From Parasphingopyxis algicola (GTDB lineage Bacteria > Pseudomonadota > Alphaproteobacteria > Sphingomonadales > Sphingomonadaceae), in the NCBI RefSeq assembly GCF_013378075.1, contig NZ_CP051131.1:3546501-3610500 (forward strand): DNA of 64,000 bases. Direction: 5' to 3'. Of this stretch, positions 30,750-54,315 are shown in pieces. The position numbers and the translations under genes are program-made. The notes under the pieces were generated by a model that did no database searches, had not been told where the DNA came from, and saw only the letters and a program-made list of their open reading frames with translations. Position 1 is the stretch's first letter; each line of letters begins with the position of its first letter.

Positions 30750-31219
30750 TGCGGCCCCAGAAACATGAAGGTGCCCGTGACATTGGCGATCGGGCTGTCG
30801 GCATCGCCGTCATGGGCATAACCGCGGACAAAGGCGACGCTCTTCGTGTGGCGGTAGCATTCCATATGGCCGGTCACCCGATGGCCGACCTTGGCGGGGC
30901 GCAGATAGTCGACGCGCAAATCGATGGTGACGGTCTGGAAGAATTTGCCCGTGGTCAGCATGATGCACATGCCCGACGCCATGTCGCACAGGCTGATGAT
31001 CGGGCCGGAGGCGAGGATGCCGGTCTTCGGATCGCCGATCAGCTTCTCGTCATAGTCGATCGCGAGCTCGACCCAGTTGTCCGCGTTCGCGACATACTGC
31101 ACGCCGATCAGCCCATTATGGCTGTGCTGGTTGAGCATGTCGAAAAAGGCGCGCGGATCGAGCTCGCCGGAGGTCAGCTTTTCGCGGATCGCGATGATAT
31201 CGTTCTGGTCAGGCGGCAC
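30746..31219 (-). CDS. Hotdog-fold (PaaI/YbgC-like) thioesterase
   Basis: About 157 residues (174 if it begins further upstream). It carries the region SHNGLIGVQYVANADNWVE, then ASGPIISLCDMASGMC, the helix that packs on the sheet, and FQTVTIDLRVDYLRPAKVG, matching PaaI-type thioesterases. It lies behind wecC with overlap; GTG 31219 would overlap the wecC stop slightly, while ATG 31249 and a GTG at 31270 are other options. The start is uncertain. Together with the next gene it adds two thioesterases at the end of the sugar-nucleotide operon. Confidence 0.83.
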   Translation of the reverse strand: MPPDQNDIIAIREKLTSGELDPRAFFDMLNQHSHNGLIGVQYVANADNWVELAIDYDEKLIGDPKTGILASGPIISLCDMASGMCIMLTTGKFFQTVTIDLRVDYLRPAKVGHRVTGHMECYRHTKSVAFVRGYAHDGDADSPIANVTGTFMFLGPQ

Positions 31220-32459
31220 GGGACGGCTCGCGCCAGAGGCCCACGGCATCGATGACGACTTTGTCGCCAACGTCGCCCTTGCGTTTCACAAAGGCTTTAT
31301 GCCCGACAAGCAGAACGACAATATCCGATTTGGCCATCGCCTCGTCGAATCCGGCCAGCCGGATATTGTCATGCCGCCAGAGCTTTTCGGGCAGCGCATT
31401 GACATGCGGCTCCACCGCGCAAACTTCGAACCCTTCTGCGGCAAGACCTATCGCGATATCCACGGCCGGGCTTTCGCGTAAATCGTCGACATTGGGTTTG
31501 AAAGCTAGGCCGAGGCACGCAACCTTTCTCGATCCACGTTCGGCGCTTGCTGAACGGATCTTGGCGATCACCGTCTCGGGCCGCCCGTCGTTCACCCGGC
31601 GGGCCTCGGCCATCAGCCCGGTAAGCTCCCCATCGGCGGAGATCAGGAACCAGGGGTCGACCGCGATGCAATGGCCGCCAACGCCCGGGCCCGGATTGAG
31701 GATGTTCACGCGCGGATGCCGGTTGGCGAGATCGATCGCCTCCCAGGGATTGAGCCGGTGCGCTTCTCCGATATTGGCCACCTCGTTGGCAAAGGCGATA
31801 TTGACGTCGCGATAGGCATTTTCGATCAGCTTGACGAGTTCGGCTGTCTTTGCGTCGGTGAGGTGGATTTCGCCGCGCACGAAGCTTTGGTAGAGATCGC
31901 GCGCGCGTTCCGCATCTGCCGCTGTCAGACCGCCGACAATACGGTCATTCTGGACGAGTTCGCGTACCATCTGGCCGGGCAGGATGCGTTCCGGACAATA
32001 GGCGACGGCGACCTGGAGGGTGTCGTCCTCGACGAGATCCGGACGCACTTCGCGGATGATTGCGGCCATATTGTCGGTGGCGCCGACCGGGCTGGTCGAT
32101 TCCAGGATAACGAGATTGCCGGGTTCGAGGATCGGCGCGACCGATCGAGTCGCGGCCTCGACGAACGACATGTCCGGCGACTTGTCTTCCCGGATCGGTG
32201 TCGGGACCGTGATGACGAACGCATCGGCGGGTTGCGGTTCGGAAAGGGCCTCGAGCCTCCCGCTGTTCACCGCGCCGCGCACCAGCATGTCGAGATCGGG
32301 CTCTGGGAAATGGGCGCGTCCCTCGTTGAGCTCGTCCACGATATCCGGGTCGACATCGGCGCCTTTGACCGCGAAACCGGCCGATGCCAGCGTCGCGGCG
32401 GTCGGCAGGCCGATATAGCCGAGGCCGACGACGCAAACTGTTTTGAACTCATGAGGCAT
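31209..32459 (-). CDS. wecC: UDP-N-acetyl-D-mannosamine dehydrogenase
   Basis: A 416-residue NAD-dependent nucleotide-sugar dehydrogenase. It has the N-terminal Rossmann GLGYIGLP, STSPVGATDNMA, the catalytic-region YCPERILPGQM and PGVGGHCIAVDPWF with the active-site cysteine, fitting the WecC branch (UDP-ManNAc to UDP-ManNAcA, four-electron oxidation). Its start overlaps the stop of wecB by 11 bases, so product of the first enzyme is passed to the second. ManNAcA is used in enterobacterial-common-antigen-like or capsule polymers. Confidence 0.93.
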   Translation of the reverse strand: MPHEFKTVCVVGLGYIGLPTAATLASAGFAVKGADVDPDIVDELNEGRAHFPEPDLDMLVRGAVNSGRLEALSEPQPADAFVITVPTPIREDKSPDMSFVEAATRSVAPILEPGNLVILESTSPVGATDNMAAIIREVRPDLVEDDTLQVAVAYCPERILPGQMVRELVQNDRIVGGLTAADAERARDLYQSFVRGEIHLTDAKTAELVKLIENAYRDVNIAFANEVANIGEAHRLNPWEAIDLANRHPRVNILNPGPGVGGHCIAVDPWFLISADGELTGLMAEARRVNDGRPETVIAKIRSASAERGSRKVACLGLAFKPNVDDLRESPAVDIAIGLAAEGFEVCAVEPHVNALPEKLWRHDNIRLAGFDEAMAKSDIVVLLVGHKAFVKRKGDVGDKVVIDAVGLWREPSRAA

Positions 32460-33576
32460 TTTTCATCGCTTCCACAATTCGGGCCGCGGCCGTGCCGTCG
32501 CCAAAGGGGTTCTTGATGGCACTTATCCGCGCATATTCCTCCTGATCGTCGATTAAGGTTTCCGTTTCCCTAACGATGCGATCCGTATCGGTACCGACCA
32601 GACGGCAGGTGCCTGCCTTGATCGCTTCGGGTCGTTCGGTAACGTCGCGCGTCACCAGTACGGGCTTGCCGAGCGAGGGCGCTTCTTCCTGGATGCCGCC
32701 GGAATCGGAAATGACGAGATGGGCGCGGTCCATCAGATAGACGAACGGCAGGTAATCCTGCGGTTCGATCAGATGCACGGCGGGAGTGTTCGAAAGGGTT
32801 TCCCTGGCGGCCCGCTGCACGTTGGTGTTGAGGTGGACGGGATAGACGATCTCGGTATCACCCCGCGCGGCGAGACGGACGAGCGCTTCGCACATCCGCG
32901 CCAAGCCGCCGTCGAAATTTTCCCGTCTGTGACCGGTCACCACGATCAGCCGTTTATCGACATCGAGAAAATCGAATTGCGCGTCGAGTTCGGCCTTTTG
33001 CGAGCTGTCCGAATGGATATCGTCAACCACGGAGAGCAAGGCATCGATAACGGTGTTACCGGTTACGAAGACATGATCGGGATTTACCTTTTCGTGGATC
33101 AGCGCTTCGGCGGCTGTTCGGGTCGGTGCAAAAAGCCAACGGCTGACGAGATCGATGAACCGGCGGTTCATTTCCTCCGGCCAAGGCGCATACAGATTGC
33201 CGGTGCGCAGCCCCGCCTCGACATGGCCGATCGGAATTTGCGCGTAAAAAGCCGCCATAGCGGCGGCCATGGCGGATGTGGTGTCGCCATGGACAAACAC
33301 GGCATCGGGCCGGCCCGCCGCAAATATATCCGTGAGACCCGTCATTGTCGCGACCGTTACGTCGGTAAGCGTCTGATCGGTCTTCATGATATCAAGATCG
33401 ATATCGGGAACGATATCGAACAGAGAGAGAACCTGGTCGAGCATCGATCGATGCTGGCCGGTAACGCAGACGGTCGTCTCGAACGCGGGCTCGGCCTGGA
33501 AAGCTTTGATTACGGGCGCCATCTTGATGGCTTCCGGCCGCGTGCCGAAGACGATGAAGATTTTCACGATTTTCAT
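32449..33576 (-). CDS. wecB: UDP-N-acetylglucosamine 2-epimerase (non-hydrolysing)
   Basis: A 375-residue GT-B-fold epimerase making UDP-ManNAc from UDP-GlcNAc. It shows FGTRPEAIKMAPV, TGQHRSMLDQVL, VHGDTTSAMAAAMAAFY, HVEAGLRTGNLYAPWPEEMNR and the C-terminal SGGIQEEAPSLGKPVLVTRD. These are the known UDP-binding and catalytic blocks of WecB/MnaA. It is the first gene of the leftward wecB-wecC-thioesterase operon. The 300-base gap before it separates it from the more A+T-rich glycan genes to the right. Confidence 0.95.
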   Translation of the reverse strand: MKIVKIFIVFGTRPEAIKMAPVIKAFQAEPAFETTVCVTGQHRSMLDQVLSLFDIVPDIDLDIMKTDQTLTDVTVATMTGLTDIFAAGRPDAVFVHGDTTSAMAAAMAAFYAQIPIGHVEAGLRTGNLYAPWPEEMNRRFIDLVSRWLFAPTRTAAEALIHEKVNPDHVFVTGNTVIDALLSVVDDIHSDSSQKAELDAQFDFLDVDKRLIVVTGHRRENFDGGLARMCEALVRLAARGDTEIVYPVHLNTNVQRAARETLSNTPAVHLIEPQDYLPFVYLMDRAHLVISDSGGIQEEAPSLGKPVLVTRDVTERPEAIKAGTCRLVGTDTDRIVRETETLIDDQEEYARISAIKNPFGDGTAAARIVEAMKNAS

Positions 33577-33877: not shown

Positions 33878-35323
33878 TTATCTGGCGGACTGAGAGGCCG
33901 TCAGCATTTCCGTCAACTCTACGGCGGGCGGGAAATTTTCGCCCTTATGCGCTTTGAGCTTCTCGAGCCATTTCGCCGCTTCGCCGTAAGAACCTTTCAG
34001 GATATAGGTTTCGACCAAATTCCTCATGTGCAGACCGTTTTTCGGGTCCTCTTGAACGACGTTCAAAGAAATCTTGATCGCCTCGTCATATTTTTTCTTG
34101 CGCTTCAACGCCCTGGCCCTGTCAATTGGCCGGTGCCCGTCGGAGTCAATGATGCTCCGAAACAGATCCGGATCATTGACCAGATCGCCGAAGCTCGAAA
34201 TGTCTCGATTTTTTGAGCGCGCGTATCGATCGAGTTCGCTGATCGGAAGAAACTCATTTCGCGCCCAGAAACTATCATTGTAACTCCGCTTCGGCGCCTG
34301 AAGCTGAAGCTTCACCTCCTGGTTGCCAATCTTGTCCTCCAGCCAGGATGAATTCACTTTGTAGGGTTCATCACCGAATAATGATTCGAGATTTCGCAAC
34401 ATCCCGGATCCCATGAAGTAACTGTTGCCCAAAGTCTCTCTGATGCCCAGATCGGTCAGGGCAACGGCCGGGATACCTGAGCTGGCAGCCTCCAGAAGCG
34501 CCGTCGAACTTACGCTCAGCGCGACTGTTCCGTCAGATATCAGGCTTTCGACCGGCTCAAACGTAATCGCGAAATTGGGAAGTCGGCGCTCTCGTTTTTC
34601 AACGATCTCCAGAAAGACGGTTTCGTAATTGTATTTCGGTTTGTGGGCCGTGAACTTTTCACCTCGCATGAACCGAGGTTTGATCAGGAAAACCTTGTCT
34701 CGGTGTTGATCCGCAAGTCTTTCCAACTTGCTGACAATATACTCCGCCTCTGCCAGATTGGGGATGTCTGGTTGTCCGAAAAAGACAAACCGATCCGCTT
34801 TGTCGAGTCGTTCGGAAATGCGTTCGGCGGTGTCGGTTTTGTCTCCAAAGATCGGCAATTTCGTAACGGTCGTTCTAGGTGGAGTGGCGCTCATATCAGA
34901 GTAAAGCGAGTTGGCCAGCTCGGCCTCGGAGCTGTTTGCGCACACAACCAGATCGGCACATTCCCGAAACTGGTAGGCTCCCACGATAACGCCGGGCAAA
35001 TTGATGCCCACGGGATAGGATATGATCAAAGGTCGTTCTTCGTGGGCGAAATAGTGATGCAGGTGCAACCACAGGACGAGCATATCGCGGGCCGCTATAA
35101 AACAGATCAGTGCATCGTGATCGGTCGTTCCAGTCGTGCATTGCTGGAGAAAGTCATCGAGTTCGATTGTATCGAGGCTTTGGCCGAGTGTCCGGCCGAG
35201 CGACTTTGCCATTTTCGATTGAGAGTCATTCGAAACCACACCGAGTGGACTCAGCTCCCGATTCAGCGCGTTTTTCAAAAATTTCACAGCCAATTGCTTT
35301 CCATCCAAGGAACCAAGTTGCAA
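33878..35323 (-). CDS. GT-B-fold glycan-locus protein (DUF6716-like) with C-terminal TPR-like helices
   Basis: A 481-residue protein of a family found in glycan loci. Residues 80-330 look like a GT-B transferase: YPVGINLPGVIVGAY, FFGQPDIP, FLIKPRFMRGE and SVSSTALLEAASSGIPAVALTD; the KP and SST blocks lie where bacterial sialyl/polysialyl transferases carry HP and SS motifs. The last 80 residues form two helical repeats like TPRs (ALKRKKKYDEAIKISLNVV, ETYILKGSYGEAAKWLEKL). Start TTG 35323 is chosen; GTG 35287 is possible. The donor and acceptor are not known. Confidence 0.65.
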   Translation of the reverse strand: MQLGSLDGKQLAVKFLKNALNRELSPLGVVSNDSQSKMAKSLGRTLGQSLDTIELDDFLQQCTTGTTDHDALICFIAARDMLVLWLHLHHYFAHEERPLIISYPVGINLPGVIVGAYQFRECADLVVCANSSEAELANSLYSDMSATPPRTTVTKLPIFGDKTDTAERISERLDKADRFVFFGQPDIPNLAEAEYIVSKLERLADQHRDKVFLIKPRFMRGEKFTAHKPKYNYETVFLEIVEKRERRLPNFAITFEPVESLISDGTVALSVSSTALLEAASSGIPAVALTDLGIRETLGNSYFMGSGMLRNLESLFGDEPYKVNSSWLEDKIGNQEVKLQLQAPKRSYNDSFWARNEFLPISELDRYARSKNRDISSFGDLVNDPDLFRSIIDSDGHRPIDRARALKRKKKYDEAIKISLNVVQEDPKNGLHMRNLVETYILKGSYGEAAKWLEKLKAHKGENFPPAVELTEMLTASQSAR

Positions 35324-37991: not shown

Positions 37992-37993
37992 CA

Positions 37994-39624: not shown

Positions 39625-39650
39625 CGCAATCCTTTCGTTTATACAAAAGT

Positions 39651-40412: not shown

Positions 40413-40413
40413 A

Positions 40414-41677: not shown

Positions 41678-41702
41678 GATAACATTCCGATTCTGTATCC
41701 GA

Positions 41703-42440
41703 TTATTTCGACGCAGTCTTTTTTATTAGATTGAAGGTCAGGTAATTCGTTCGAGTTACAATACTAGACATGTAAAGGACCTTGAATCCAACGTCTTCGC
41801 AAAGATCGTGAAATTCGTGAATCGGGAATGATGTGGCCGTGATATGCCGTTCTTCATAGTCCTCAAGCGATTCGATCGGCCTGTATTTTTCCTTCCCGTC
41901 GTCATATCGTATCTGGATATGGCCTATCGCGCGCGGCGCCGTGACGGCATGGATCGCCTGTAACACCTCCGCTCCATAGTCCTTTGACGGGAAGTGCTGG
42001 AAAACCGCGCTCGAAAGGAAGGTGTCGACGGGCTCGTCGATTTTATCCACGATTGACATCGGATCTCCATCGAGGAGCGCTTCTCGGAAGCCGTCGAAGT
42101 GTTCAGCCTTTGCGAGGCGGCTGCATTCCGAAAGATTCTTTTGCGAAATATCGACGCCATAATAACGATGCGCGTAGCGCATATGGGCGAAAAGATTCGC
42201 TCCGCCGCCAGGGCCCCACTCTAGAAACGTTCTCGGTTTTGTCCAAATTCCCGGCTGGGCACCGATATGGGTCATCAGTGTATTGAGCTTTTCGAGGCTG
42301 GTTTGTCCGATACGTTGCCACTTTTCATCGTCTTTCCATCGCCCGTAGCCGCGCCAGTGCGACTGGTCTCGCCGGTATTCTTCGTCGGTGTAATTCTCCC
42401 AGACGCCGGCGATAGTCTTGAGGACCGGGTTATCTTTCAC
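41703..42440 (-). CDS. Class I SAM-dependent methyltransferase
   Basis: A 245-residue protein with a clear SAM site FLEWGPGGGANLFAHM and an acidic partner YYGVDISQKNLSEC; the FQHFPSKDYGAEVLQAI block follows. It is one of several methyltransferases on the leftward strand here. The substrate is likely a saccharide unit, because of the locus. Its start at 42440 faces a 222-base gap before the DUF115 gene. Confidence 0.82.
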   Translation of the reverse strand: MKDNPVLKTIAGVWENYTDEEYRRDQSHWRGYGRWKDDEKWQRIGQTSLEKLNTLMTHIGAQPGIWTKPRTFLEWGPGGGANLFAHMRYAHRYYGVDISQKNLSECSRLAKAEHFDGFREALLDGDPMSIVDKIDEPVDTFLSSAVFQHFPSKDYGAEVLQAIHAVTAPRAIGHIQIRYDDGKEKYRPIESLEDYEERHITATSFPIHEFHDLCEDVGFKVLYMSSIVTRTNYLTFNLIKKTASK

Positions 42441-42662: not shown

Positions 42663-44486
42663 TCAGCTCCGGCCGCCTGCTGCCAAGGCTTCTTCCAACG
42701 AAATGCGCGGGAGCACGTTCAGCCGGCCGCCGGGCGTCGCGTTGAAATATTCGATGCCGCGTGCTGCCAGCTGGTTTCGAGCTACTTCATAGACTTGAAA
42801 AACCGGCCCGTCGTCCGCCCAGATTCGCATGATGCTCGACGCTCTTGTCGAACTCGTCGCGTGTTCGCTTGCCGGATAGAAATATTTGCGCGGTCCTTCG
42901 TCCGATTCCGAGGTAATCCCATAATCGCAATCGCATCCGAGCATGTAGATCTCGCTTATGCCCATGTGCACCGCCAAAGGCAGACAGAAAGTAAGCAAGA
43001 CCGTGTAGCCGTCGTTCATCGGGAGAGAGAGATCATATTGCAGCCCGCCTACCTCGTCCGCCAGGAATTTGGGCTGATCGAATATGAGATAGCGCGATGT
43101 ATATCGTTCGAACCGCTGGTCTTCCTCGATCACCGATTTGAATCGATGGCTGAAAAACAGTTCGGGATGATGTTCGTGCGCCATCAGTTTTTGGATGAAT
43201 TTTTCGTTTAGAGCCGGGTCGGGGTTTCGCCAACCGCCAAACATCTCATGCGACGAAATTGCATAATAGGTGGGCTGCAGAGCATCGAAATCGGGATGAT
43301 TGGCAAACCAGTTCGCCACGAAAGTTATCTCGCCATCGAGTTTCGAAAGATCGTGCTGAGCCAGGGACGGGCCGTTGCCGATAATGAAAGCCCGTTTTCC
43401 CTGATGGACGTTCTTCAAAGCTGCGATTCTCGAAAACTCGCCATCCGCTTTAAAAGCTTCGACTTGAGTCTGTCTCTCTCCTTGAGCGTTGGCCGCTGCT
43501 GCCGCACTCAAAAGCTTACCCTTGAGTATTGGAACGCGCGGCATGATTCTGCCGGAAGGTGTAGATGCGTTTTCATCGCTTCTTACGCTGCCATCTGCTG
43601 GCAAGGACATCCCGTCCACGTCCTCATCGCCTTCCCAGGCCAAATCGAGCCCGACCATGCCGATTTCCAAAAACGGTAACTCGTTGTTGGACTCCGCGTC
43701 CGATCCTTTTCCGGCAAGTTTCGGAACGATGGATAGAATGGGAAAATGGCCTCCGTCCAAAGGCAATTTGATTTCCATAAACGTCCAGCCATCTGCCGCC
43801 TTGGTGAACGTAGCCTCAACGCCGGCATTCTGCTGCTTACTATCTGGGACGATAGCCCAAGGACTTGTCCCTATATCCACCTGGGTACGGGGCATTGGAA
43901 GGCTTGCACGATACTGCACAGTGAATTTCCGATAGCCGGTTAATCTTAGCGCGAAAGTCAAACGGCAGGATGTATAGGGCGCCCACCGCCGCCAATCGGC
44001 GCCACAGCGCAGTAGAACGGCGGCATGGGAGCTTCGGTCGAACGGCCTGAACTTTGCGAACCGGTCAAAAGCGAAATCGGCTTCTTCGATATTCGGTTCG
44101 ATATCCATGCCGAGCTGGGGACGATCCGAATTTTCCATCGCCATCCGGACAACGTCCAGCTTCAAGGTCTCATTGAAATCGATCTGGGATCGTTCGATCG
44201 CTCCTTCGATATCGTCCCCGGCAACTGATGCGATGGCCCTCGCCAACGCCGCGGCCGTTTCTGCACGATCCTCCGTCAGTGCGTTGACAAACGTTTTTCT
44301 TGTGATCGGGCTTTCGCCCGCTTTGGGATCAGCAGCGATATCGAGAATTGCCCGGAGCTGAGCACGTTTCTCCCGCAGCGCCATGTTTTCTCTGAGCAAT
44401 GCGCCGACCTGATGCTCGAGTTGCTGGCACAAGTCCGTTACGGCTAACAATTCTTGCTTCAGCGCTTCTCTCTGGGTCACAGTCAA
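42663..44486 (-). CDS. DUF115/Maf-like (MptE-like) protein with N-terminal coiled coil
   Basis: A 607-residue protein. Residues 1-50 form a coiled coil (QLEHQVGALLRENMALREKRAQLR). About 150-290 may be a beta-sandwich (FALRLTGYRKFTVQYRAS). The C-terminal third is DUF115: RAFIIGNGPSLAQHDLSKLDGEITFVANW, YYAISSHEM, YMLGCDCDYG and IEYFNATPGG. DUF115 proteins include the Maf flagellin glycosylation factors and the archaeal MptE pyrophosphokinases, all with a sialyltransferase-like Rossmann core. It could therefore move nonulosonate. Its N-terminus is paralogous to the adjacent gene at 44523. Confidence 0.78.
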   Translation of the reverse strand: MTVTQREALKQELLAVTDLCQQLEHQVGALLRENMALREKRAQLRAILDIAADPKAGESPITRKTFVNALTEDRAETAAALARAIASVAGDDIEGAIERSQIDFNETLKLDVVRMAMENSDRPQLGMDIEPNIEEADFAFDRFAKFRPFDRSSHAAVLLRCGADWRRWAPYTSCRLTFALRLTGYRKFTVQYRASLPMPRTQVDIGTSPWAIVPDSKQQNAGVEATFTKAADGWTFMEIKLPLDGGHFPILSIVPKLAGKGSDAESNNELPFLEIGMVGLDLAWEGDEDVDGMSLPADGSVRSDENASTPSGRIMPRVPILKGKLLSAAAAANAQGERQTQVEAFKADGEFSRIAALKNVHQGKRAFIIGNGPSLAQHDLSKLDGEITFVANWFANHPDFDALQPTYYAISSHEMFGGWRNPDPALNEKFIQKLMAHEHHPELFFSHRFKSVIEEDQRFERYTSRYLIFDQPKFLADEVGGLQYDLSLPMNDGYTVLLTFCLPLAVHMGISEIYMLGCDCDYGITSESDEGPRKYFYPASEHATSSTRASSIMRIWADDGPVFQVYEVARNQLAARGIEYFNATPGGRLNVLPRISLEEALAAGGRS

Positions 44487-44858: not shown

Positions 44859-45794
44859 CTAAAAAACCTTCTCGATAAAGGACGCTTCGATTGCGGATTC
44901 GTCCTTCCTCGAAAGTTTATTCTTCGAGAGCCGTTTGGTCGTCGCGGTTTGGAGAACAGAAGTTTGCCTGATATATGCACGCACCAGTTTTCGCAAAGTG
45001 CTACGCGCGAGAAACCGGAAGGCATGCTGCCACCAGATTTCTTCCAAACCGATATAGTTTCGTTCACTTTCTTTGACTTTAACATTCCATGGTTTTTCGC
45101 CAAGAAAGTGAAGTATGCGAACATCCTTTTTCTGCAAATAGCTCCAAGCCGGCTGCCCAGCGCTCTCGACCAGCCTCTTGCTGTAATTGTAGCGTTCGCC
45201 GAGCCAGTATTTGGGAGTGTCGCGCAGGGCGATATTCAATACCGCCTGATCTGCCCGGCCTTGGCTCTTGTCGATTTCAGAAACGTCGAGAGCGTCTGCG
45301 AGGTGTTCGAACTCGACGACACCGGCCACGTCGCGGCGGATGACCATCGTGCCAGTGTTGAAATAGGGCAAATAACGACCGCGTTTGGCGTCAAAGGCGC
45401 GTACGACTGAAAAGGGCTCTGTTCTTTCGAACAAAACGCTGAGGTCCCCCATCACAAGCATGTCGCTATCAAGCGTTACGACATAATCATATGGCGATCT
45501 CAGCGCTTCTAATATGTAGAAGGCGGCCCTTAGCCGTTTAGGCGTTTTTGCGACCTCTTCCGCAAAACGGAATACATTTCCATAGTGCTCGTTTTCTACT
45601 TCGCGGAATTCGAGATTCTCGATCTCGTTATTCATCATGGCTTTCATGTGCTCGCTGAGCGGCGCGTTTTCCCGGTTCCATAATATGACAATCGGGTCGT
45701 CAAAATACGGGTTATGATTCAAGAAGCTCTTGATCATAACGATGGCGCCGAAGACAAATGGGTCGCTCACCACGGTCATCACGCAGCGTTTCAT
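44859..45794 (-). CDS. Glycosyltransferase family 8-like protein
   Basis: A 311-residue GT-A type transferase. Metal-binding DxD is D109-S-D111 (VVTLDSDMLVMGDL). The N-terminal MTVVSDPFVFGAIVMIKSF and the ADQAVLNIAL block near 180-190 match GT8, whose members transfer galactose or glucose from UDP-sugars. The Lys/Arg-rich tail may hold the enzyme on the membrane. It is the first gene of the leftward operon and is divergent from the nonulosonate genes, 212 bases away. Confidence 0.82.
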   Translation of the reverse strand: MKRCVMTVVSDPFVFGAIVMIKSFLNHNPYFDDPIVILWNRENAPLSEHMKAMMNNEIENLEFREVENEHYGNVFRFAEEVAKTPKRLRAAFYILEALRSPYDYVVTLDSDMLVMGDLSVLFERTEPFSVVRAFDAKRGRYLPYFNTGTMVIRRDVAGVVEFEHLADALDVSEIDKSQGRADQAVLNIALRDTPKYWLGERYNYSKRLVESAGQPAWSYLQKKDVRILHFLGEKPWNVKVKESERNYIGLEEIWWQHAFRFLARSTLRKLVRAYIRQTSVLQTATTKRLSKNKLSRKDESAIEASFIEKVF

Positions 45795-46006
45795 CGAAAT
45801 TTTCTTTTTCCTTACCCGCTAGTTAAGCCTGCGGGATAACGGCCGCCGACCGTTTGTCAATGGTCTCCGAGGACTCTTCCGACGTGAAGGGGAAGTTGCA
45901 ATTTCGTGCCGTTTTTTCGTCGGTAGCGCGGCATTTGCTGGTTGCGATGAGCGTTGATTTGCGTTAGACGCCCGCGCTGCCTTTCCTCAAAAAATCGAGA
46001 CAACAA

Positions 46007-46882
46007 ATGGTTCAAATTATTGCCGAAATCGGCTGCAATCATAAGGGCGATGTCGAGATCGCAAAGGAACTGATCTCGGTCGCCGCGCGCGTCTGCAAAG
46101 CGAATGTCGCGAAGTTTCAGAAGCGCAACAATATAGAGCTGCTATCGGCGGATCAATATGAGGCGCCGCATCCGGTGCCGGCAAACTCTTATGGCGATAC
46201 TTACGGCGCGCATCGGGAAGCGCTGGAGTTTACGCCCGACCAGCACCAGGAGTTGCTCGATCATTGTCGTTCGGAACGAATCGAATATTCGACTTCCGTT
46301 TGGGATCTCACCTCGGCGAAACAGATGGCAGCGCTCAATCCCCGGCTGTTGAAAATTCCGTCGGCGACGAACCTGCACTGGTCATTGCAGGAATGGCTAT
46401 GCCGCAACTACGACGGCGAAATCCACGTTTCGACCGGAATGACCACGCGCGCAGAAATCTCGGAAATCGTGGATTTCTACGAGAAGTTCGATCGCGCCAA
46501 GGACTTGGTTCTCTACTCGTGCACGTCCGGTTATCCGGTTGCCTTCGAAGATATCTGTTTGCGGGAAATCGAAACCCTGCGGGAACATTATGGCGACCGC
46601 GTCAAGGCGATCGGATTTTCGGGCCATCATCTCGGTATTGCTGCCGATGTCGCGGCGCTTGCACTCGGTGTTGAATATGTCGAGCGGCACTTCACGCTTG
46701 ATCGCACATGGAAGGGCACCGACCATGCGGCCAGCCTCGAACCCGATGGGCTGCGGCGCCTTGTTCGTGATCTTAACCATGTCGAACAAGCGCTAACCTT
46801 CAAGCGCGAGGATATCCTGCCGGTTGAACAGGTTCAGCGCGACAAGCTCAAATGGCAGGACAGCACGAGCGAAGCTGCCTGA
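46007..46882 (+). CDS. Nonulosonate (sialic-acid-type) synthase, NeuB family without SAF domain
   Basis: A 291-residue TIM-barrel enzyme: AEIGCNHKGDVEIAKELI, AKFQKRNN (the KFQ PEP-site block), a YSTSVWDLTS pair, KIPSATNLHW, HVSTGMTT and the C-terminal IGFSGHHLGIAADVAALALG, EYVERHFTLDRTWKGTDHAASLEPDGL. It condenses PEP with a hexose such as ManNAc, ManNAc-6-P or Man-6-P. The usual C-terminal SAF (antifreeze-like) lid is missing; length ends right after the barrel. The substrate is not settled by sequence. The stop is 2 bases from the NeuA start, so it is one operon. Confidence 0.85.
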   Translation: MVQIIAEIGCNHKGDVEIAKELISVAARVCKANVAKFQKRNNIELLSADQYEAPHPVPANSYGDTYGAHREALEFTPDQHQELLDHCRSERIEYSTSVWDLTSAKQMAALNPRLLKIPSATNLHWSLQEWLCRNYDGEIHVSTGMTTRAEISEIVDFYEKFDRAKDLVLYSCTSGYPVAFEDICLREIETLREHYGDRVKAIGFSGHHLGIAADVAALALGVEYVERHFTLDRTWKGTDHAASLEPDGLRRLVRDLNHVEQALTFKREDILPVEQVQRDKLKWQDSTSEAA

Positions 46883-46884
46883 CC

Positions 46885-48078
46885 ATGGGGGCTACGGTCG
46901 CGGTCATTCCAGCGCGCGGCGGCTCGAAGGGTATTCCCGGGAAAAATCTGGCCAAGGTTGGTGGGGTGCCTCTCGTGGGACGCGCAGTAGCGGCTGCGCG
47001 TGCTGCTGCGCGGATCGATCATGTATTCGTTTCGAGCGACGACGCGGCAATCCTCGCCTGCGCGCGCAAGCATGGTGCAGGTGCAATCGAAAGGCCGGCG
47101 GAAATCGCCGGCGATACCGCTTCATCCGAATCCGCGCTCCTCGATGCGCTCGATCGACCGGAGATCCAAGCGCTCGATCCGGAGCGTGTCGTCATGATCC
47201 AGTGTACGTCGCCATTTACACGTGCCGAGGAGCTTGATGCACTCGTAGCCGCACTGGATAGAGAGGGCGTAGATTGCGCACTGACCGTTGCCGAAGACCA
47301 CGGCTTTCTCTGGATACGAGACGAGAGCGAGACGGGTGTCGGAGTCAATCACGATCACCGCGCACCCCGGCAGCGCCGCCAAGATCTGTCGCCGCAATAT
47401 CGGGAAACAGGCGCCGCCTATGCGATGGACGTTGCGGCTTTTCGTGCCGCGGGCACCCGCTTTTGCGGCGATCCGGCGTTGGTCGAGACGGCCGCGGCCG
47501 CGCCCGAGATCGATACGCGTCGCGATCTTGAGGTTGTTCGCGCGATCGCCGCACAAATTGGCGCGCATCCGCAGAAAAACCTTGCGAAGAATATCGCGGC
47601 ACTCGTGACCGATTTTGACGGTGTCCATACCGACGATCGAGTGATTGTCGATCAAGCTGGGCACGAGGCTGTCCGATGCTCGCGCAGCGACGGCATGGGC
47701 GTCGAGCGGCTTCGCGAGGCGGGTATGCCGATCCTCATCCTTTCGAAGGAAACGAACAGCGTTGTAGCGCGCCGCGCACAGAAGCTCAGGGTTCCTGTGC
47801 TCCACGGCGAGAATGACAAGCTGGGAACGCTACGGCAATGGGCAAAAAAGCAGGCGTTGACACTCGATCAAATCTGTTTTGTCGGCAATGATGTGAACGA
47901 TGTTGCCTGTATGCAGGCCGTCGGGCTTTCAGTCGCTCCGTCAGATGCGCGTCCGGAGGCGCATAGGGCTGCGGACCTCGTATTGAGGGCGACCGGCGGC
48001 AATGGAGCGGTGCGCGAGATATGCGAATACCTGCTCTTATCCTTTCCGGCTGGCAAAAAGTCTGGTGAGGCCCGATGA
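46885..48078 (+). CDS. Bifunctional CMP-nonulosonate synthetase with C-terminal KdsC/CMAS-like HAD phosphatase
   Basis: A 397-residue fusion. The N-terminal cytidylyltransferase has ARGGSKGIPGKN (9-21), MIQCTSPF, and EIDTRRDL (D210, D214) metal residues. The C-terminal HAD domain begins ALVTDFDGVHTDD (nucleophile D243, acid D245), then ILSKETNSVVARRAQKL and FVGNDVNDVACMQAVGLS, close to the tail of vertebrate CMAS and to KdsC. The fusion implies that a 9-phosphate of the nonulosonate is removed and the product activated by the same protein. ATG 46885 is right after the synthase stop; it overlaps the next start by four bases. Confidence 0.85.
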   Translation: MGATVAVIPARGGSKGIPGKNLAKVGGVPLVGRAVAAARAAARIDHVFVSSDDAAILACARKHGAGAIERPAEIAGDTASSESALLDALDRPEIQALDPERVVMIQCTSPFTRAEELDALVAALDREGVDCALTVAEDHGFLWIRDESETGVGVNHDHRAPRQRRQDLSPQYRETGAAYAMDVAAFRAAGTRFCGDPALVETAAAAPEIDTRRDLEVVRAIAAQIGAHPQKNLAKNIAALVTDFDGVHTDDRVIVDQAGHEAVRCSRSDGMGVERLREAGMPILILSKETNSVVARRAQKLRVPVLHGENDKLGTLRQWAKKQALTLDQICFVGNDVNDVACMQAVGLSVAPSDARPEAHRAADLVLRATGGNGAVREICEYLLLSFPAGKKSGEAR

Positions 48079-49031
48079 CCGGAAACATTGAACGAGAGAA
48101 GTGCGAGCATCGTGCTGCTGCACTCAGGCGGCACCGGAATTTTGCCGATGACCTGCGCAACGAGCCCTTGGCTTTTTGGGACTTGCGGAAAATCGAAACA
48201 ATCGAGTGTGTATGTTGTGATGCCCAACCTTCGCATGTTTCCGCTTATCCCTTCGCATCTAGCGAACGTTTCGCGCGGCAGATCATTGTCTGGTGTGAAA
48301 ATTGCGGTTTTGGCATGGTGCCGCAAACCTCGTTTCCGCTCGAAGACTATTATCGCGAGGAGTATGCTCTACAAAATCGGGGCGACCGCCACGCGGATCC
48401 GGAACTCTATTTCGCGAAGATGGACTCCGAACATCCGCCGAAGAATCTGGCGCGTTACATTGCGAGGGCTCGCTACCAGATCAAAAACATCCGACGCTTT
48501 ATACCGCGCATCGGAGCGATGCTCGATGTCGGTGCGGGACCCGGTTACGCTCTTCGAGCATCCGGTGCGGATAAGAAATTCGCACTCGAGCATGACGAAT
48601 ATTCGAGAAAGTTTCTCCACCATATCGGCGCGACCTTGGTCGAATGGGAGACGGCGTCGCGCCATCGCTATGATGTGATTCTTCTCTCGCATAGTCTCGA
48701 GCATTTCGAGTATTCGGATGTCGTCAAACGGCTCCGGATGCTCGTGAGTTCGTTGAATCCCGGCGGATTGCTTTATGTCGAGGTCCCGCCGGGCGGGTTG
48801 GGCTGGAAGCATTACAGCTACAAGCATGAACCACATACGCTGTTCTTCACTCCCGAGGCGCTACGCCGGCTGGCGACGAAACTGGGCGGCGAGGTATTAA
48901 AATGTGAGCCGACGATCAGGAATTACAACTTGGTCAGCGATCTCGAGTCGCCGATTTATCACGGCGCGAAGGCTCGCCGGTTGAACGACCCCCGTGGTCG
49001 GTTGACGCTGATATTGAGAAACCAAGGATAG
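48075..49031 (+). CDS. Class I SAM methyltransferase with zinc knuckle (family member 4)
   Basis: A 318-residue protein. Zinc ligands C45/C48 (CVCC) and C74/C77 (CENC). The SAM site is LDVGAGPGYALRA, then HSLEHFEYSDV and VEVPPGGLGWKHY, EPHTLFFTPEALRRLA. It overlaps the NeuA-HAD gene by four bases (ATGA), so it is produced together with the nonulosonate enzymes and could methylate the nonulosonate or its polymer. It converges on the GT29-like gene, with 30 bases between their stops. Confidence 0.82.
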   Translation: MTGNIEREKCEHRAAALRRHRNFADDLRNEPLAFWDLRKIETIECVCCDAQPSHVSAYPFASSERFARQIIVWCENCGFGMVPQTSFPLEDYYREEYALQNRGDRHADPELYFAKMDSEHPPKNLARYIARARYQIKNIRRFIPRIGAMLDVGAGPGYALRASGADKKFALEHDEYSRKFLHHIGATLVEWETASRHRYDVILLSHSLEHFEYSDVVKRLRMLVSSLNPGGLLYVEVPPGGLGWKHYSYKHEPHTLFFTPEALRRLATKLGGEVLKCEPTIRNYNLVSDLESPIYHGAKARRLNDPRGRLTLILRNQG

Positions 49032-49061
49032 TAGGCGCGACCTTCGAAACGCGGTTTGAAT

Positions 49062-52000
49062 TCACACGAATTTCGCGTGACGTCCGTAAGGAACGATCAG
49101 CTGGTTCACCAGATCGCGTTCGAAATCGATGGCGTGAACCTCGCCCACCTGCAGATGCGTTTCGCCGACGTCGAAATAGTGCATTTCCCCGGACGAAAAG
49201 AAATCGAAACCGAACGCCGTGAACGGGCATTGAACGAGAAATTCGAGAATCTGGATAACCCGGAAACCTGTACTGGGAAAAGGATAGGAAAGATTTTCGC
49301 TCATCATCTTTACGCAGGGTGCCAGATATCCGGTTTCCGCGGGATCCAGTTCGAAGCCCAGCCGCCCTCGGCTGAATGCGGCGATATCGGGGAAATGGCG
49401 CGCATGCGGCTGCATCATCAAGGTTTTCGCGCGCTCGACGCTCGCCCGGTGCGGTGACGCTTGGCGATTGGCGGACGAATACCAATAGTCGGTTTTCGTT
49501 CCCAGATCCTTTTCATAGCCTTCGATGACGAAATCGTTCAGCCGGATCACGGTATCGAACGCATCGATTGCCGGTCCGCGCCCCTGTTCGAGCAATGACG
49601 GCGAATTGCCGATCAGCGCATTGGAGCCGTGTCTCAGAGTGTCCGTCCAGATATCGAAATTCCGATGCACATGCTCGGCGATATCGCTGGGATGGTCGGC
49701 GTAACCGCCGTTGAGCAGGTAGGTAGTGCGCGGATCGCGGGCAACGCCCTCGCGATACGCGTCCATCACCTGTGCGCATTTCCGATAGACCGAGTCCAGC
49801 GCCCGTTTCGCGTCGTCGGCGTCGCCGTTTCTGGCGTGGAGAAATGCGCGCAGTGTGTCCGTCCACAGGCTTTCGTCCCGAGCGTTTGCGCAATCGCCTA
49901 GCCAATCCAGAGCATCCTGGGTGCGATCGAGGTAAATCAGCGCGCGTCCGACCGCCGATCGGGCGCTTTCCTCTTCCGGGTCCAGCGCCAACATTTCGGT
50001 GAAGTTGTAGAGCATCCCGTCATAGTCGCGCCGACGCTCGCAGACTTGGCCCGCCTTTTTCCAGAAGGCCGGCACGCCGGGAAACCGTTGCTTCATGCGT
50101 TCGCAGAGTTCGGCGGCTTCCTGGAATTCACCCGTCGCGAAAACAGCGTTAAGCTGTCGATGGTAATCGTTCACATGTTGCGTCCGCTCGGCCACCGCGG
50201 CCCGGATTTCCACCGCCGAATTCACGTTTCCGACGGCCAGGTCGTGATCCGAAAGAGCCCGGAACAGATTGACATTGTCGCGTTCGACCGCCGTTCCCTC
50301 ATATGATCGCGGCGCCGGCTTACCGGTCTCGAAACCGGTCCGCACCAGGTCGCCGGCTACGACCTGGCAGTCGGGGAACCGTTCCGACAGCCTTTCCGCT
50401 TCCTCTCTTGCGGCAACCAGCTTGCCTTGCCTTGAAAGCATCAGGACCCGGTTTCGAAGCAGGGTCGACTGGTCAGGGGACTTGTCGACAAGATCGGCGA
50501 TCACCGCATCGGCTTCGTCGTAGCGAAGCCCGTCGATCAGGGCAGCAGCATAGGAGACTAGAAAGGCCGGGCTCCGATAGCGCTCGGTCAACGACCTCCA
50601 TATCGAAATCCGCTCTTCGGGACGCTTGTGACTGTCCAGCGCCCGGCCGAACAGCAGAGCCGCGGTCTGGGAGGATTCGACGTAGCCACTGACGAGCGCG
50701 GCCGTCAGAATGTCGAAGCCCTGAGAACGGAGCGCTTTCGCGAGGCTCAGTTTCAGGCTCTGTGACGCGTTTTCGAGGCTCGCGAGACTGTGCAGCGCGA
50801 TCCGCAGAGCGCCGTTCTCGCTGAGCTCTGCAGCCTCGCTCGAAAGAAGCCTCAGATCGGTTTCGTGGCCCGCATCAAGCGCGATCGTGAGTTTGACGAT
50901 GTGTCGCCATCGCGCCAACCCGTTGTGCTCCGGTTCGTCCGCATCCGGTGCCGTTTCCGCGAATGCCTTTTTTCGCCGATAGCGCTCGAGCCATTGGTCT
51001 ATCGCCGGAAGTGCTGCGCTCGTCATCGGATTCCCGTCGCCGCACATCTGCTCGAGTAGGGCTTGCTGCGTTTCCGCATATGCGGCGGCCGTTTCGGGTT
51101 CCGAACTGCCATAATGGATTTTGCCCAGCAGATAGTGCGGGCTTGTGGCCCCTTGACCCCGTTCGACGGCTTCTTCTGTCGAGTTGTCATATGCAATGGT
51201 GAGCAATGGCGTCCGCTTGACAATCGATCTCAAAAGACCGTGACTCAACGGGTTGACGATCAGCCAATCGGCAAAGTCTGCCAAGGCGTTCGTTTGCTCT
51301 CTCTTTTCGAGAACTCTGACAAGCGCGCCTGTGCCAATTTGTTGGGCCACGGCCAGAGCCAGTTCCTGGTCGGCGCCGGACGCCGAATCCGGCATCCGGC
51401 TTTTTGCGAAAGCCCGGGCCAGCGACGACCGGGCCATTTTCTTCAGTCTGCGCGGCAGCGACTCGGCTTCCACCAGAAGCTCGTACATGAGGGCGAAATT
51501 GCCGGGTCCAGCCTGTTTCTCGCGGACAATCTTGGCGGCCGAAAGGATGTGTGCGCGCAATGATTGCCGCGTATCTGGCCGCTGTCGGTCGGAGCTGCCC
51601 GGATCCCGGTTCGCATCCAGGTGCCCCCCGGTTTCGAAAATTCTGAGAGCTAGGTCATAGATCGATGCACGATCCGCCGTGCGCGAATAAGATTCGGCAA
51701 GATGTTCGAAGAGCCCCTCATCATCCGCCCGGCCGGTCCGGACCAAAATCTTGGCCAGGACGGCATGAGCGGTGGGCATGCTCGCCAACACGGATAAAAA
51801 GGGCCAGTTCGGCGTCTTTCCGCCGTTCACCGAGTTCACCAGCTGCCAGTTAGGTATATGCGCGGCGACGGCGCAGATCGAGGCTCGTCTGGCGAGCGGC
51901 AGTTCGAGATCGTACCGCATTGCGACCATCGATTGCGCCAGCAGTTCGTCGGTTTCGACACGTGCCTCATGATCGAAGGGGTTGGTATAGAGAAGCAGCT

Positions 52001-52100
52001 TCTTGGCTACCGCCACCCAAAGACGGTGATCGTTCGACAGCTGTGCGAGCTTCAGAACATCCTTCAAGCTGTCAATCTGCATCGGTTTTCTGGAGCTCAC
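49062..52100 (-). CDS. TPR-repeat protein with C-terminal GT29 sialyltransferase-like domain
   Basis: A 1012-residue protein. Residues 1-810 are helical repeats (TPR-like). The last ~185 residues carry the eukaryotic sialylmotif set: L motif NALIGNSPSLL with IDAFDTVIRLND (828-858), S motif PSTGFRVIQILEF with AFGFDFF (942-965), motif III HYFD (974-977), and motif VS HAIDFE (H989, E994; HX4E; HLQVGE also fits). In GT29 enzymes L and S bind CMP-sialic acid, motif VS provides a catalytic His. No membrane helix is seen. It faces the NeuA gene, so it would use CMP-nonulosonate made next door. The call is by motifs, not a search. Confidence 0.72.
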   Translation of the reverse strand: MSSRKPMQIDSLKDVLKLAQLSNDHRLWVAVAKKLLLYTNPFDHEARVETDELLAQSMVAMRYDLELPLARRASICAVAAHIPNWQLVNSVNGGKTPNWPFLSVLASMPTAHAVLAKILVRTGRADDEGLFEHLAESYSRTADRASIYDLALRIFETGGHLDANRDPGSSDRQRPDTRQSLRAHILSAAKIVREKQAGPGNFALMYELLVEAESLPRRLKKMARSSLARAFAKSRMPDSASGADQELALAVAQQIGTGALVRVLEKREQTNALADFADWLIVNPLSHGLLRSIVKRTPLLTIAYDNSTEEAVERGQGATSPHYLLGKIHYGSSEPETAAAYAETQQALLEQMCGDGNPMTSAALPAIDQWLERYRRKKAFAETAPDADEPEHNGLARWRHIVKLTIALDAGHETDLRLLSSEAAELSENGALRIALHSLASLENASQSLKLSLAKALRSQGFDILTAALVSGYVESSQTAALLFGRALDSHKRPEERISIWRSLTERYRSPAFLVSYAAALIDGLRYDEADAVIADLVDKSPDQSTLLRNRVLMLSRQGKLVAAREEAERLSERFPDCQVVAGDLVRTGFETGKPAPRSYEGTAVERDNVNLFRALSDHDLAVGNVNSAVEIRAAVAERTQHVNDYHRQLNAVFATGEFQEAAELCERMKQRFPGVPAFWKKAGQVCERRRDYDGMLYNFTEMLALDPEEESARSAVGRALIYLDRTQDALDWLGDCANARDESLWTDTLRAFLHARNGDADDAKRALDSVYRKCAQVMDAYREGVARDPRTTYLLNGGYADHPSDIAEHVHRNFDIWTDTLRHGSNALIGNSPSLLEQGRGPAIDAFDTVIRLNDFVIEGYEKDLGTKTDYWYSSANRQASPHRASVERAKTLMMQPHARHFPDIAAFSRGRLGFELDPAETGYLAPCVKMMSENLSYPFPSTGFRVIQILEFLVQCPFTAFGFDFFSSGEMHYFDVGETHLQVGEVHAIDFERDLVNQLIVPYGRHAKFV

Positions 52101-52133
52101 CCGTCATGAAACGATCATCTTGTTATCGCTGCT

Positions 52134-52146
52134 TGAACACTGTTCA
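52134..52146. promoter_or_regulatory. 13-base palindrome TGAACACTGTTCA in divergent region
   Basis: TGAACA-C-TGTTCA is symmetric around one base. It lies 34 bases upstream of the GT29-like gene's start in the 256-base divergent gap to the GSCFA gene. It could be an operator; no known factor was matched. Confidence 0.4.
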
Positions 52147-52184
52147 TACGCGTAAGACCTGCGCGCGGTGTCCAAGAAAGATCG

Positions 52185-52197
52185 ATGCACAGTGCAT
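52185..52197. promoter_or_regulatory. 13-base palindrome ATGCACAGTGCAT in divergent region
   Basis: ATGCAC-A-GTGCAT is symmetric around one base, 38 bases from the other palindrome and 160 bases from the GSCFA start. Two different short palindromes in one divergent gap may be operator sites or chance. Confidence 0.35.
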
Positions 52198-52356
52198 TGC
52201 CCAATTATTTCAACAGGATCAACATTTTGTGGTTTTGTCGGAATAACGCCGGTTTGTCGCGTTTCGGCGTTTCTCCGTTCCGCTGACAGGCGATTATCTG
52301 CCTTGCGGACGTTGGTTTGGCTTGCGGTCTCCGTTCCAGGCCATAGATAGTCGCCT

Positions 52357-54015
52357 ATGCCTATTATCGCGTTGAACGGGCCCGAAGCGATGCGTATTCG
52401 CAAGGCCAACGATCTTGCCACATGGGGCAGCCGAACGAAGGAAAATCGCGTCGAACCGGTCGCAAAACCGGCGTTCGATACGCCGTTTCAACTCCAGCCG
52501 GGCGAAAAGATCTTCACGATCGGTTCCTGTTTCGCCCGCCATGTCGAGGGCGAGCTCGTAAATCGCGGTTTCGAGATTCCGATGCGAGACCTGTTTCGGA
52601 AGGGGGCATTTGAGGGTCTCGCGCCGGAGATCGTGAACAATTTCGGTACGCCCTCGATCTACAACGAGTTTGCATGGGCCTTCGGCGAACAGGCGTTCGA
52701 CGAAGACAAAGCCATAGTCGAGGTCGGCAAGGACAGATTTGTCGATCTGCATATGGTGAACAGCATCCGTCCCGGGCCGTTCGACGAGGTCCTCGCCCGT
52801 CGCAAAGGCCTGTTGAGCGCGACACGGTCGCTCGCCGATTGCCGGGTTCTCATCATGACGCTCGGATTGGCCGAGGTATGGTGGGACGAGGAGGCGCAAA
52901 CCTATTTGAACACGGCGCCCTTGCCGACCGTTTTGAACGCGGCGGCCGACCGGTTCTCGCTGCACGTGCTAGATTTCGCCGAATGTCACGACTATCTCAA
53001 GCGCGCTCTGGACATCGCCTTTGCGCATGGCCGGGACGATCTGCGCGTTATCCTGACCGTTTCTCCGGTGCCGATGATGGCGACGCACCGGCGCACCGAC
53101 GTGATTACGGCCAACAGCTATTCGAAGTCCGTGCTGCGAACCGTTGCCGAGCATATAGTGCAAGCGGACGACCGGATCAGCTATTTCCCCAGCTATGAAA
53201 CGGTGACGCTGAGCGATCGCCGTTTGGCGTGGATGGACGATTTGGTCCATGTGTCCAAAGAGATGGTCGGGCTCAACGTGGACAGGATGGTCGACGCGTT
53301 CACCGGCAACCCCCATCCGGTCGAGCGCCAATTGCCCGCCACGGCCAGTCTTTCGAACGAAAATGCGGCCGCCCTGTTCCTTGCCGATCAGGCGCGCAGC
53401 GCGCGGGCTCTGGATGACGAGGCCTTTTTCGAAGAGCATCGCGACGAGGCTCGAAAATCGCCCGCCTTTGCTCTTGAATATGCGAAATTCCTATTCGCCA
53501 AGAAAGATCTCGAGGCGGCGCTCGATATCCTCGATAATGCGCAAGGCGTCGAAGCCGAATTGCTCCGCGCCAGTCTATTGCGTGCGACGGGAGCCTATGA
53601 CGAGGCGGCGGCTGTTGCGGCAAATGTCTGTCGGACCAATCCCAAGGGACAAGAGCAGTGGCGGCTCAGGCTCGACATCGCGGCCGCCCGCAAGGACCTG
53701 GAGGATATTGCGGTCATCGAGAAAGAGTGGCTGCAGGCCGCGCCGGCGAGGCGGGGAATCATCCTGTCTTTCGTCGGCAGCGCTTTTCGCCGGGCCGGGA
53801 ACGATCACGAAGCGCTCGATCGCCTGCGCGATTCCGGGATCGATCCCGCCGATGCCGAAGGCTTTGTGGCCGTCGAATGGGCTTGGGCCCTTCTCAGCTT
53901 GCAGGAATATGGCGAAGCCAGGGGCGTCATCGAAAAATTCGTCCCGCGTTCCGATTGGCAGGTCAACCAGGTCAAGCAGATCAGGAAAAAACTCGCCGCC
54001 GCCGAGGCCGCATAA
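52357..54015 (+). CDS. GSCFA-domain protein (SGNH-like) with C-terminal TPR
   Basis: A 552-residue protein. The GSCFA domain occupies about 40-320: FTIGSCFARHVEG, NNFGTPSIYNEFAWAF, MTLGLAEVWWDEEAQ and TVSPVPMMATHRRTDV, a family related to SGNH esterases and found in glycan loci; its natural activity is not well known. The last 200 residues form TPR-like helices (ALEYAKFLFAKKDLEAALDIL). The start ATG at 52357 is the one that begins a well-conserved head region. The gene points away from the GT29-like gene. Confidence 0.82.
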   Translation: MPIIALNGPEAMRIRKANDLATWGSRTKENRVEPVAKPAFDTPFQLQPGEKIFTIGSCFARHVEGELVNRGFEIPMRDLFRKGAFEGLAPEIVNNFGTPSIYNEFAWAFGEQAFDEDKAIVEVGKDRFVDLHMVNSIRPGPFDEVLARRKGLLSATRSLADCRVLIMTLGLAEVWWDEEAQTYLNTAPLPTVLNAAADRFSLHVLDFAECHDYLKRALDIAFAHGRDDLRVILTVSPVPMMATHRRTDVITANSYSKSVLRTVAEHIVQADDRISYFPSYETVTLSDRRLAWMDDLVHVSKEMVGLNVDRMVDAFTGNPHPVERQLPATASLSNENAAALFLADQARSARALDDEAFFEEHRDEARKSPAFALEYAKFLFAKKDLEAALDILDNAQGVEAELLRASLLRATGAYDEAAAVAANVCRTNPKGQEQWRLRLDIAAARKDLEDIAVIEKEWLQAAPARRGIILSFVGSAFRRAGNDHEALDRLRDSGIDPADAEGFVAVEWAWALLSLQEYGEARGVIEKFVPRSDWQVNQVKQIRKKLAAAEAA

Positions 54016-54238: not shown

Positions 54239-54315
54239 TGGCGCGCCCGGCAGGAGTCGAACCTGCGGCCTCAAGATTAGAAGTCTCGTGCTCTATCCAG
54301 CTGAGCTACGGGCGC
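54239..54315 (-). tRNA. tRNA-Arg (anticodon TCT), CCA encoded
   Basis: Reading the minus strand from 54315: acceptor GCGCCCG, D arm with GCTC/GAGC, anticodon loop CTTCTAA (TCT), T arm GCAGG-TTCGACT-CCTGC, acceptor CGGGCGC, discriminator G and CCA at 54239-54241. The cloverleaf closes perfectly in all stems. TCT reads AGA and AGG, arginine codons that are rare in high-GC genomes. It is a typical integration target and marks the right edge of the glycan region. Confidence 0.95.

What the first reader, a model, noticed from the sequence alone, without database searches (positions are those of the whole stretch)
46007..52100. Possible compact nonulosonic-acid pathway with animal-like architecture
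Three consecutive parts fit as make (NeuB-type synthase, 46007-46882), dephosphorylate and activate (NeuA fused to a CMAS/KdsC-like HAD domain, 46885-48078) and transfer (GT29-like domain at the end of a TPR protein, 49062-52100). In vertebrates the same order of steps is done by NANS, CMAS (with the same C-terminal HAD domain) and GT29. Most bacteria use a separate NeuC, a HAD-free NeuA and GT42, GT52 or GT80 transferases. No NeuC is visible, and the synthase could use Man-6-P to make Kdn. The combination in one locus is the best candidate for an undescribed system here.
Basis: partly seen in the sequence, partly recalled or inferred. Interest (0 to 1): 0.85.

Follow-up and report, generated by a model that had tools for sequence, protein, structure and literature searches.

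The report
Sialic-acid-type pathway with animal-like sialyltransferase
A bacterium carries a compact set of genes that look able to make, dephosphorylate, activate and attach a sialic-acid-like sugar (probably Kdn), and the likely attaching enzyme belongs to the family that decorates animal cells; the sugar-making half is a known bacterial type, while the pairing with this animal-type enzyme is unusual and untested.

The parts
46007..46882 (+). NeuB-family synthase, 291 aa, no SAF domain; probably Kdn-9-phosphate synthase (Man-6-P + PEP)
   Evidence: PF03102 E 3.8e-64; 65-71% identical to NeuB on 10 alphaproteobacterial plasmids
46885..48078 (+). NeuA (46885 to about 47568) fused to HAD phosphatase (about 47569-48075); CMP-nonulosonate synthetase with 9-phosphatase
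   Evidence: PF02348 and HAD; 53% identical to the Sinorhizobium meliloti fusion; Asp-x-Asp and later HAD motifs intact
48075..49031 (+). SAM methyltransferase whose ATG overlaps the neuA stop (ATGA); candidate sugar methyltransferase
   Evidence: PF13489 E 3.4e-11; junction read
49062..52100 (-). 1012-aa protein: TPR repeats and a C-terminal GT29 domain; candidate CMP-nonulosonate transferase
   Evidence: PF00777 and TPR; structure model and fold searches
49065..49650 (-). GT29 domain with sialylmotifs L, S, III, VS
   Evidence: alignment A6; hmmsearch against PDB, best ST3Gal1 E 1.7e-32
33878..35323 (-). DUF6716 putative glycosyltransferase, neighbour of NeuB/NeuA-HAD on plasmids; rival transferase
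   Evidence: PF20471 E 2.1e-43
44859..45794 (-). GT8 glycosyltransferase, related to the GT8 half of the S. meliloti GT42-GT8 fusion
   Evidence: PF01501 E 4e-11; blastp E 4e-12
42663..44486 (-). Protein with C-terminal MptE-like domain; second rival transferase
   Evidence: PF01973 E 1.8e-7, under its cut-off; CstII E 2.4, not significant
32449..33576 (-). WecB, UDP-GlcNAc 2-epimerase (not NeuC)
   Evidence: TIGR00236 486 bits, cut-off 210
31209..32459 (-). UDP-ManNAc dehydrogenase (WecC type)
   Evidence: NF008286 518 bits, cut-off 459
52357..54015 (+). GSCFA-domain protein with weak TPR-like C-terminus, next to the TPR-GT29 gene
   Evidence: PF08885 E 1.3e-45

Best explanation
The island encodes a surface glycan that carries a nonulosonic acid, most likely Kdn. 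NeuB condenses a mannose-type 6-phosphate (Man-6-P for Kdn) with PEP to the 9-phosphate; the HAD half of the fusion removes the phosphate; the NeuA half makes the CMP-sugar; the GT29 domain of the TPR protein transfers it from CMP to an acceptor, with the TPR part binding the acceptor or partner enzymes. The methyltransferase coupled to neuA may methylate the sugar. Shown here: the families, intact HAD motifs, the GT29 fold and motifs, and the gene neighbourhoods. Inferred: the substrate (Kdn), that GT29 rather than DUF6716 or the MptE-like protein uses this donor, the acceptor, and methylation.
Against: NeuB was not found in 6 of 13 GT29-bearing genomes (some of those are incomplete), so GT29 need not go with a nonulosonate. 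The own genome has KdsA and KdsB, so CMP-Kdo should be available. In two searches of 385 class genomes (apparently the same draw), NeuA/HAD relatives at E <= 1e-40 were in 8 and GT29 in 4; only the window's genome is in both lists. 22 of 25 phage NeuB loci show no GT29 in the stretch fetched. 11 of 19 viral GT29 groups show no NeuA (several on short contigs). DUF6716 accompanies all 7 plasmid NeuA-HAD loci examined, so it may be the real transferase. NCBIfam scores are under cut-off for every specific sugar. The GT29 gene is on the opposite strand, not in the neuBA run. The control loci were taken by one arbitrary DNA pattern; a control matched for glycan genes was not run.
Confidence: 0.5

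Rival explanations
1. The DUF6716 protein (33878-35323) is the CMP-Kdn transferase or polymerase; the GT29 domain has another donor or a side role.
For: DUF6716 lies beside NeuB/NeuA-HAD in 7 of 9 plasmid loci examined (all 7 that have NeuA-HAD), GT42 in only 3 of 9, GT29 in 0 of 9; the window has a DUF6716.
Against: It is about 11 kb from neuB in the window; three of those loci carry both DUF6716 and a GT42 sialyltransferase, so two transferases per locus is not unusual; GT29 domains elsewhere sit with NeuA in a part of the cases.
Confidence: 0.25
2. The GT29 domain transfers Kdo or another CMP-ulosonate, as is proposed for plant GT29, not the locus's nonulosonate.
For: KdsA and KdsB are in the own genome; NeuB not found in 6 of 13 GT29 genomes; in G637, which has no NeuB hit, a methyltransferase-GT29 fusion (my reading) lies in a cluster with an ORF that I read by eye as KdsA and a weak cytidylyltransferase hit (E 7e-5) that I take for KdsB; phage families pair GT29 with a cytidylyltransferase fused to HMGL-like or RraA-like domains; a Kdo role in plants is proposed in PMC5811610 (section read).
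Against: The window's kds genes are about 185 kb away if the contig is circular, whereas neuB/neuA are close convergent neighbours.
Confidence: 0.15
3. The MptE-like protein (42663-44486), of a fold family shared with Maf and GT42 transferases (recalled), adds the nonulosonate.
For: PF01973 E 1.8e-7; local similarity to the S. meliloti GT42-GT8 protein, E 1e-4; a GT8 gene lies close by.
Against: Under the Pfam cut-off; no significant PDB match (CstII E 2.4); a GT42 profile from three plasmid loci scores the TPR-GT29 protein best in the window, though only at E 0.057 (output cut to its head); the genome has no PF00669 flagellin for a Maf.
Confidence: 0.08

Closest known systems
Kdn route of Bacteroides thetaiotaomicron (Kdn-9-P synthase, KDN-9-phosphatase, CMP-Kdn synthetase)
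   Same: Same steps with a 9-phosphate intermediate (PMC6200933, passages); HAD domain aligns with chain 3e81 (E 1.2e-23), which I recall as its phosphatase
   Different: Phosphatase fused to NeuA here; the Bacteroides transferase was not examined
NeuB + NeuA-HAD + DUF6716 loci on Sinorhizobium, Ensifer, Rhizobium, Maritalea and Pseudorhodobacter plasmids
   Same: NeuB 65-71% identical, NeuA-HAD 53% for S. meliloti, DUF6716 present
   Different: GT42 in 3 of 9 loci and no recognised sialyltransferase within 9 kb in the rest; GT29 here
Eukaryotic GT29 sialyltransferases (ST3Gal, ST6Gal, ST6GalNAc, ST8Sia)
   Same: Fold, motifs L, S, III, VS
   Different: Bacterial fusion to TPR repeats; domain of about 190 residues; activity untested
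Bacterial GT29-like sequences of Petit et al. 2018 (PMC5811610)
   Same: Same kind of domain, mostly alphaproteobacterial
   Different: In the passages read they were not tied to NeuB/NeuA genes, TPR fusions or phages; supplement not read
FlmG of Caulobacter (PMC7591256, passages)
   Same: TPR N-terminal part plus a C-terminal transferase that uses a nonulosonate
   Different: FlmG modifies flagellin; this genome has no PF00669 flagellin; the transferase domains were not compared

Membership tests
GT29 sialyltransferase family | Profile match over the curated cut-off | tested here: met
   46.3 bits in two stretches, cut-off 23
GT29 sialyltransferase family | Sialylmotifs L, S, III and VS in order | tested here: met
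   GN..ID..D.VIR.N...G.KT, STG...GF, HYF, H....E in alignment A6, assigned by eye; motif names from PMC5811610, their residues recalled
GT29 sialyltransferase family | GT29 fold | tested here: met
   Foldseek and VIA-align; model pLDDT 77, pTM 0.78
GT29 sialyltransferase family | Transfer from a CMP-ulosonate donor | not testable with these tools
   needs an enzyme assay; only gene neighbourhoods support it
Kdn 9-phosphate pathway | NeuB-family synthase | tested here: met
   PF03102 E 3.8e-64
Kdn 9-phosphate pathway | HAD phosphatase with intact catalytic residues | tested here: met
   Asp-x-Asp present, unlike chain 3ewi
Kdn 9-phosphate pathway | KDN-9-phosphatase model NF058599 over its cut-off | tested here: not met
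   104 bits, cut-off 180
Kdn 9-phosphate pathway | Use of Man-6-P and formation of Kdn | not testable with these tools
   needs an enzyme assay
N-acetylneuraminate pathway (NeuC/NeuB/NeuA) | NeuC hydrolysing epimerase in the locus | tested here: not met
   The epimerase is WecB; rest of genome not tested
N-acetylneuraminate synthase NnaB | TIGR03569 over cut-off | tested here: not met
   190 bits, cut-off 400
Maf / FlmG flagellin glycosylation | Flagellin in the genome | tested here: not met
   PF00669 none at E <= 0.001; control rang in 4 of 14

The most novel reading that the evidence does not exclude
GT29, the animal sialyltransferase family, is a working CMP-ulosonate transferase family of bacteria and their phages that travels with whatever CMP-sugar route is at hand (NeuB/NeuA, KdsB-type, or cytidylyltransferases fused to HMGL-like or RraA-like aldolase domains), and phages carry NeuB-GT29-NeuA cassettes to rewrite surface sugars; the animal enzymes would then descend from a prokaryotic pool much wider than alphaproteobacteria.
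Probability: 0.4. Interest if true: 0.75.

Novelty: new variant of a known kind. Interest (0 to 1): 0.52.

Why it matters
Bacterial GT29 proteins have been listed from sequence, but no assay of one showed up in the listings of my paper searches (open-licence papers only). A locus with donor synthesis next to the GT29 gene makes their function directly testable, bears on where animal sialyltransferases came from, and could give soluble enzymes for Kdn or sialic acid chemistry.

Tried and rejected
Flagellin glycosylation: rejected, no PF00669 flagellin. NeuC: the locus's epimerase is WecB. GT42 elsewhere in the genome: no PF06002 hit, but no control rang, so this shows nothing. GT29 on plasmids: no tblastn match of P0001 at 1e-3. 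The same query in phage records: two uncultured large phages at about 25%. DUF6716 fold: a PDB profile search gave no significant match; a single-sequence structure job was still unfinished and was not collected. First genome-contig scan found no relative; the second gave 6 loci. Close NeuB relatives in the phylum of Luteimicrobium: best 40% in 119 genomes. Reverse check: of 25 phage NeuB loci, 3 have GT29. Promoter scan of 45700-52500: none found, shuffles give 2.6. In the VIA-align second look, families not listed are not excluded. Dropped rows: L127 and L128 had no GT29 profile hit and were left out (46 viral GT29 loci used); 80 listed loci of 120 control stretches were examined; 9 of the 10 closest plasmid loci were examined (H9 not).
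Full report
What is there. The window lies at 3,546,501-3,610,500 of a 3.67 Mb single-contig genome. No call names the organism; the ten closest plasmid NeuB relatives are alphaproteobacteria (taxonomy lines), and I infer the same for the host. The finding lies in a stretch of lower G+C, 0.49-0.61 from 33 to 53 kb against 0.61-0.66 on either side, with a tRNA-Arg at 54239-54315, which looks like an island. NeuB, NeuA-HAD and a methyltransferase form a tight run on the + strand (the neuA stop and the methyltransferase ATG overlap); the TPR-GT29 gene converges on it from the other side.

NeuB. PF03102 E 3.8e-64 with no SAF domain. Scores for Neu5Ac and pseudaminic synthase models are far under cut-off (190 of 400 and 137 of 340 bits). 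tblastn against 72,556 plasmid records gave 36 records, 10 of them at 60-80% identity (65-71%), from Sinorhizobium, Ensifer, Rhizobium, Marinovum, Tritonibacter, Pseudorhodobacter and Maritalea. I examined 9 of those 10.

NeuA-HAD. NeuA and HAD domains lie beside NeuB in 7 of those 9 plasmid loci (in L262 the HAD is split over two frames), each with a DUF6716 glycosyltransferase; the two without (Marinovum, Tritonibacter) show none of them within 9 kb. GT42 (CST-I type) is in 3 of 9; GT29 in 0 of 9, apart from a cross-hit of the GT29 profile on a GT42 protein. The window protein is 53% identical to the S. meliloti one. In 385 class genomes, 8 including the window's had a match at E <= 1e-40. 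In four of the other seven (G138, G436, G439, G067) a NeuB 58-66% identical to the window's lies near NeuA and HAD domains, fused or separate. The HAD domain's best PDB match is 3mmz (1.9e-40), then 3n1u, 3e81, 4um5 and 3ewi at 7e-24 to 7e-23; I recall 3e81 as the B. thetaiotaomicron KDN-9-phosphatase and 3ewi as mouse CMAS. The window has Asp-x-Asp where 3ewi has Asn-x-Asp, and it shares a Glu and a Lys with 3e81 at places where KdsC chain 4um5 has Arg and Glu. That these residues set specificity is recalled, not from a call.

How common. Counts include the window's genome: PF00777 in 2 of 60 relatives and 2 of 385 class genomes; P0001 in 3 of 396 order genomes; profile A6 in 4 of 385 class genomes. 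The genome-contig scan gave six named hits: Falsiroseomonas, a Spirochaetes MAG, Luteimicrobium, Rhodoblastus, a Prosthecobacter MAG and an Atribacteria MAG. So GT29 is rare but spread over several phyla, and it is in phage contigs. In several cases it is the C-terminal part of a longer protein: TPR in the window and G376, methyltransferase in L010.

Link to CMP-sugar genes. With NeuA and NeuB profiles built only from loci without GT29, 44 viral GT29 loci fall into 19 groups (GT29 proteins linked at 60% identity); 8 of 19 have a NeuA-type gene within 10 kb (E <= 1e-5) and 3 of 19 also NeuB; 80 control loci (677 kb) have none. With the window's NeuA, tblastn matched 1 of 50,697 phage records, a less sensitive test. 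Not all NeuA-type hits are NeuA proper: L014 is a cytidylyltransferase fused to an HMGL-like domain, L026 one fused to an RraA-like domain, and L009 is weak (1e-8). In the other direction the link is loose: of 25 phage NeuB loci 3 have GT29, one of them the contig already seen. Among 13 bacterial GT29 loci including the window, 4 have a NeuA-type gene in the fetched stretch, and a fifth, in G637, has an ORF that I read as KdsA and a weak hit that I take for KdsB. NeuB was found in 7 of the 13 genomes; some of the others are incomplete.

Reading. The sugar-making half is a known alphaproteobacterial module, probably for Kdn. Sinorhizobium fredii is on record for a 5-O-methyl-Kdn polysaccharide (reference seen in PMC9000132), though not shown to come from this locus, and Serratia marcescens KL1/KL2 strains make Kdn, with neuB needed for sialic acid in a KL1 isolate (same paper, passages). 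In the window the sialyltransferase slot that GT42 fills in three plasmid loci appears to be filled by GT29. The pairing of NeuA-HAD with GT29 was seen only here in the two searches of 385 class genomes, so this looks like an island assembled from parts rather than a conserved system. The genome also has KdsA and KdsB, so CMP-Kdo is a possible donor, and DUF6716 and the MptE-like protein remain rivals.

Literature. 'bacterial GT29' is in one held paper; 'sialylmotif' with 'alphaproteobacteria' in none; GT29 + bacteria + sialyltransferase in 41, of which 30 were listed. I read passages and one section of PMC5811610 and passages of PMC6200933, PMC9000132 and PMC7591256. I saw no report tying bacterial GT29 to NeuB/NeuA genes, but subscription papers and supplements were not searched.

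Noticed in passing
L014:5926-7635 and L026:5539-6837: Phage genes next to GT29 that fuse a cytidylyltransferase to an HMGL-like or RraA-like aldolase domain: possible new CMP-ulosonate routes.
   Followed up: partly
L016, L121, L131, L095: Phage contigs with NeuB, NeuA and GT29 within about 10 kb.
   Followed up: partly
L029:9404-13567: Spirochaetes MAG locus with two tandem GT29 genes, NeuA and a GT42-like gene.
   Followed up: no
35719-42440: Run of methyltransferase-type genes (SAM and FkbM) with a PhyH dioxygenase: a methylated glycan is likely.
   Followed up: no
33000-54315: Lower-G+C stretch ending near a tRNA-Arg: island-like; no integrase searched for.
   Followed up: no
L064:7158-9551 and L065:3242-5635: NeuB in a long open frame of about 798 codons, recalling the Serratia NeuB with an extra domain.
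   Followed up: no
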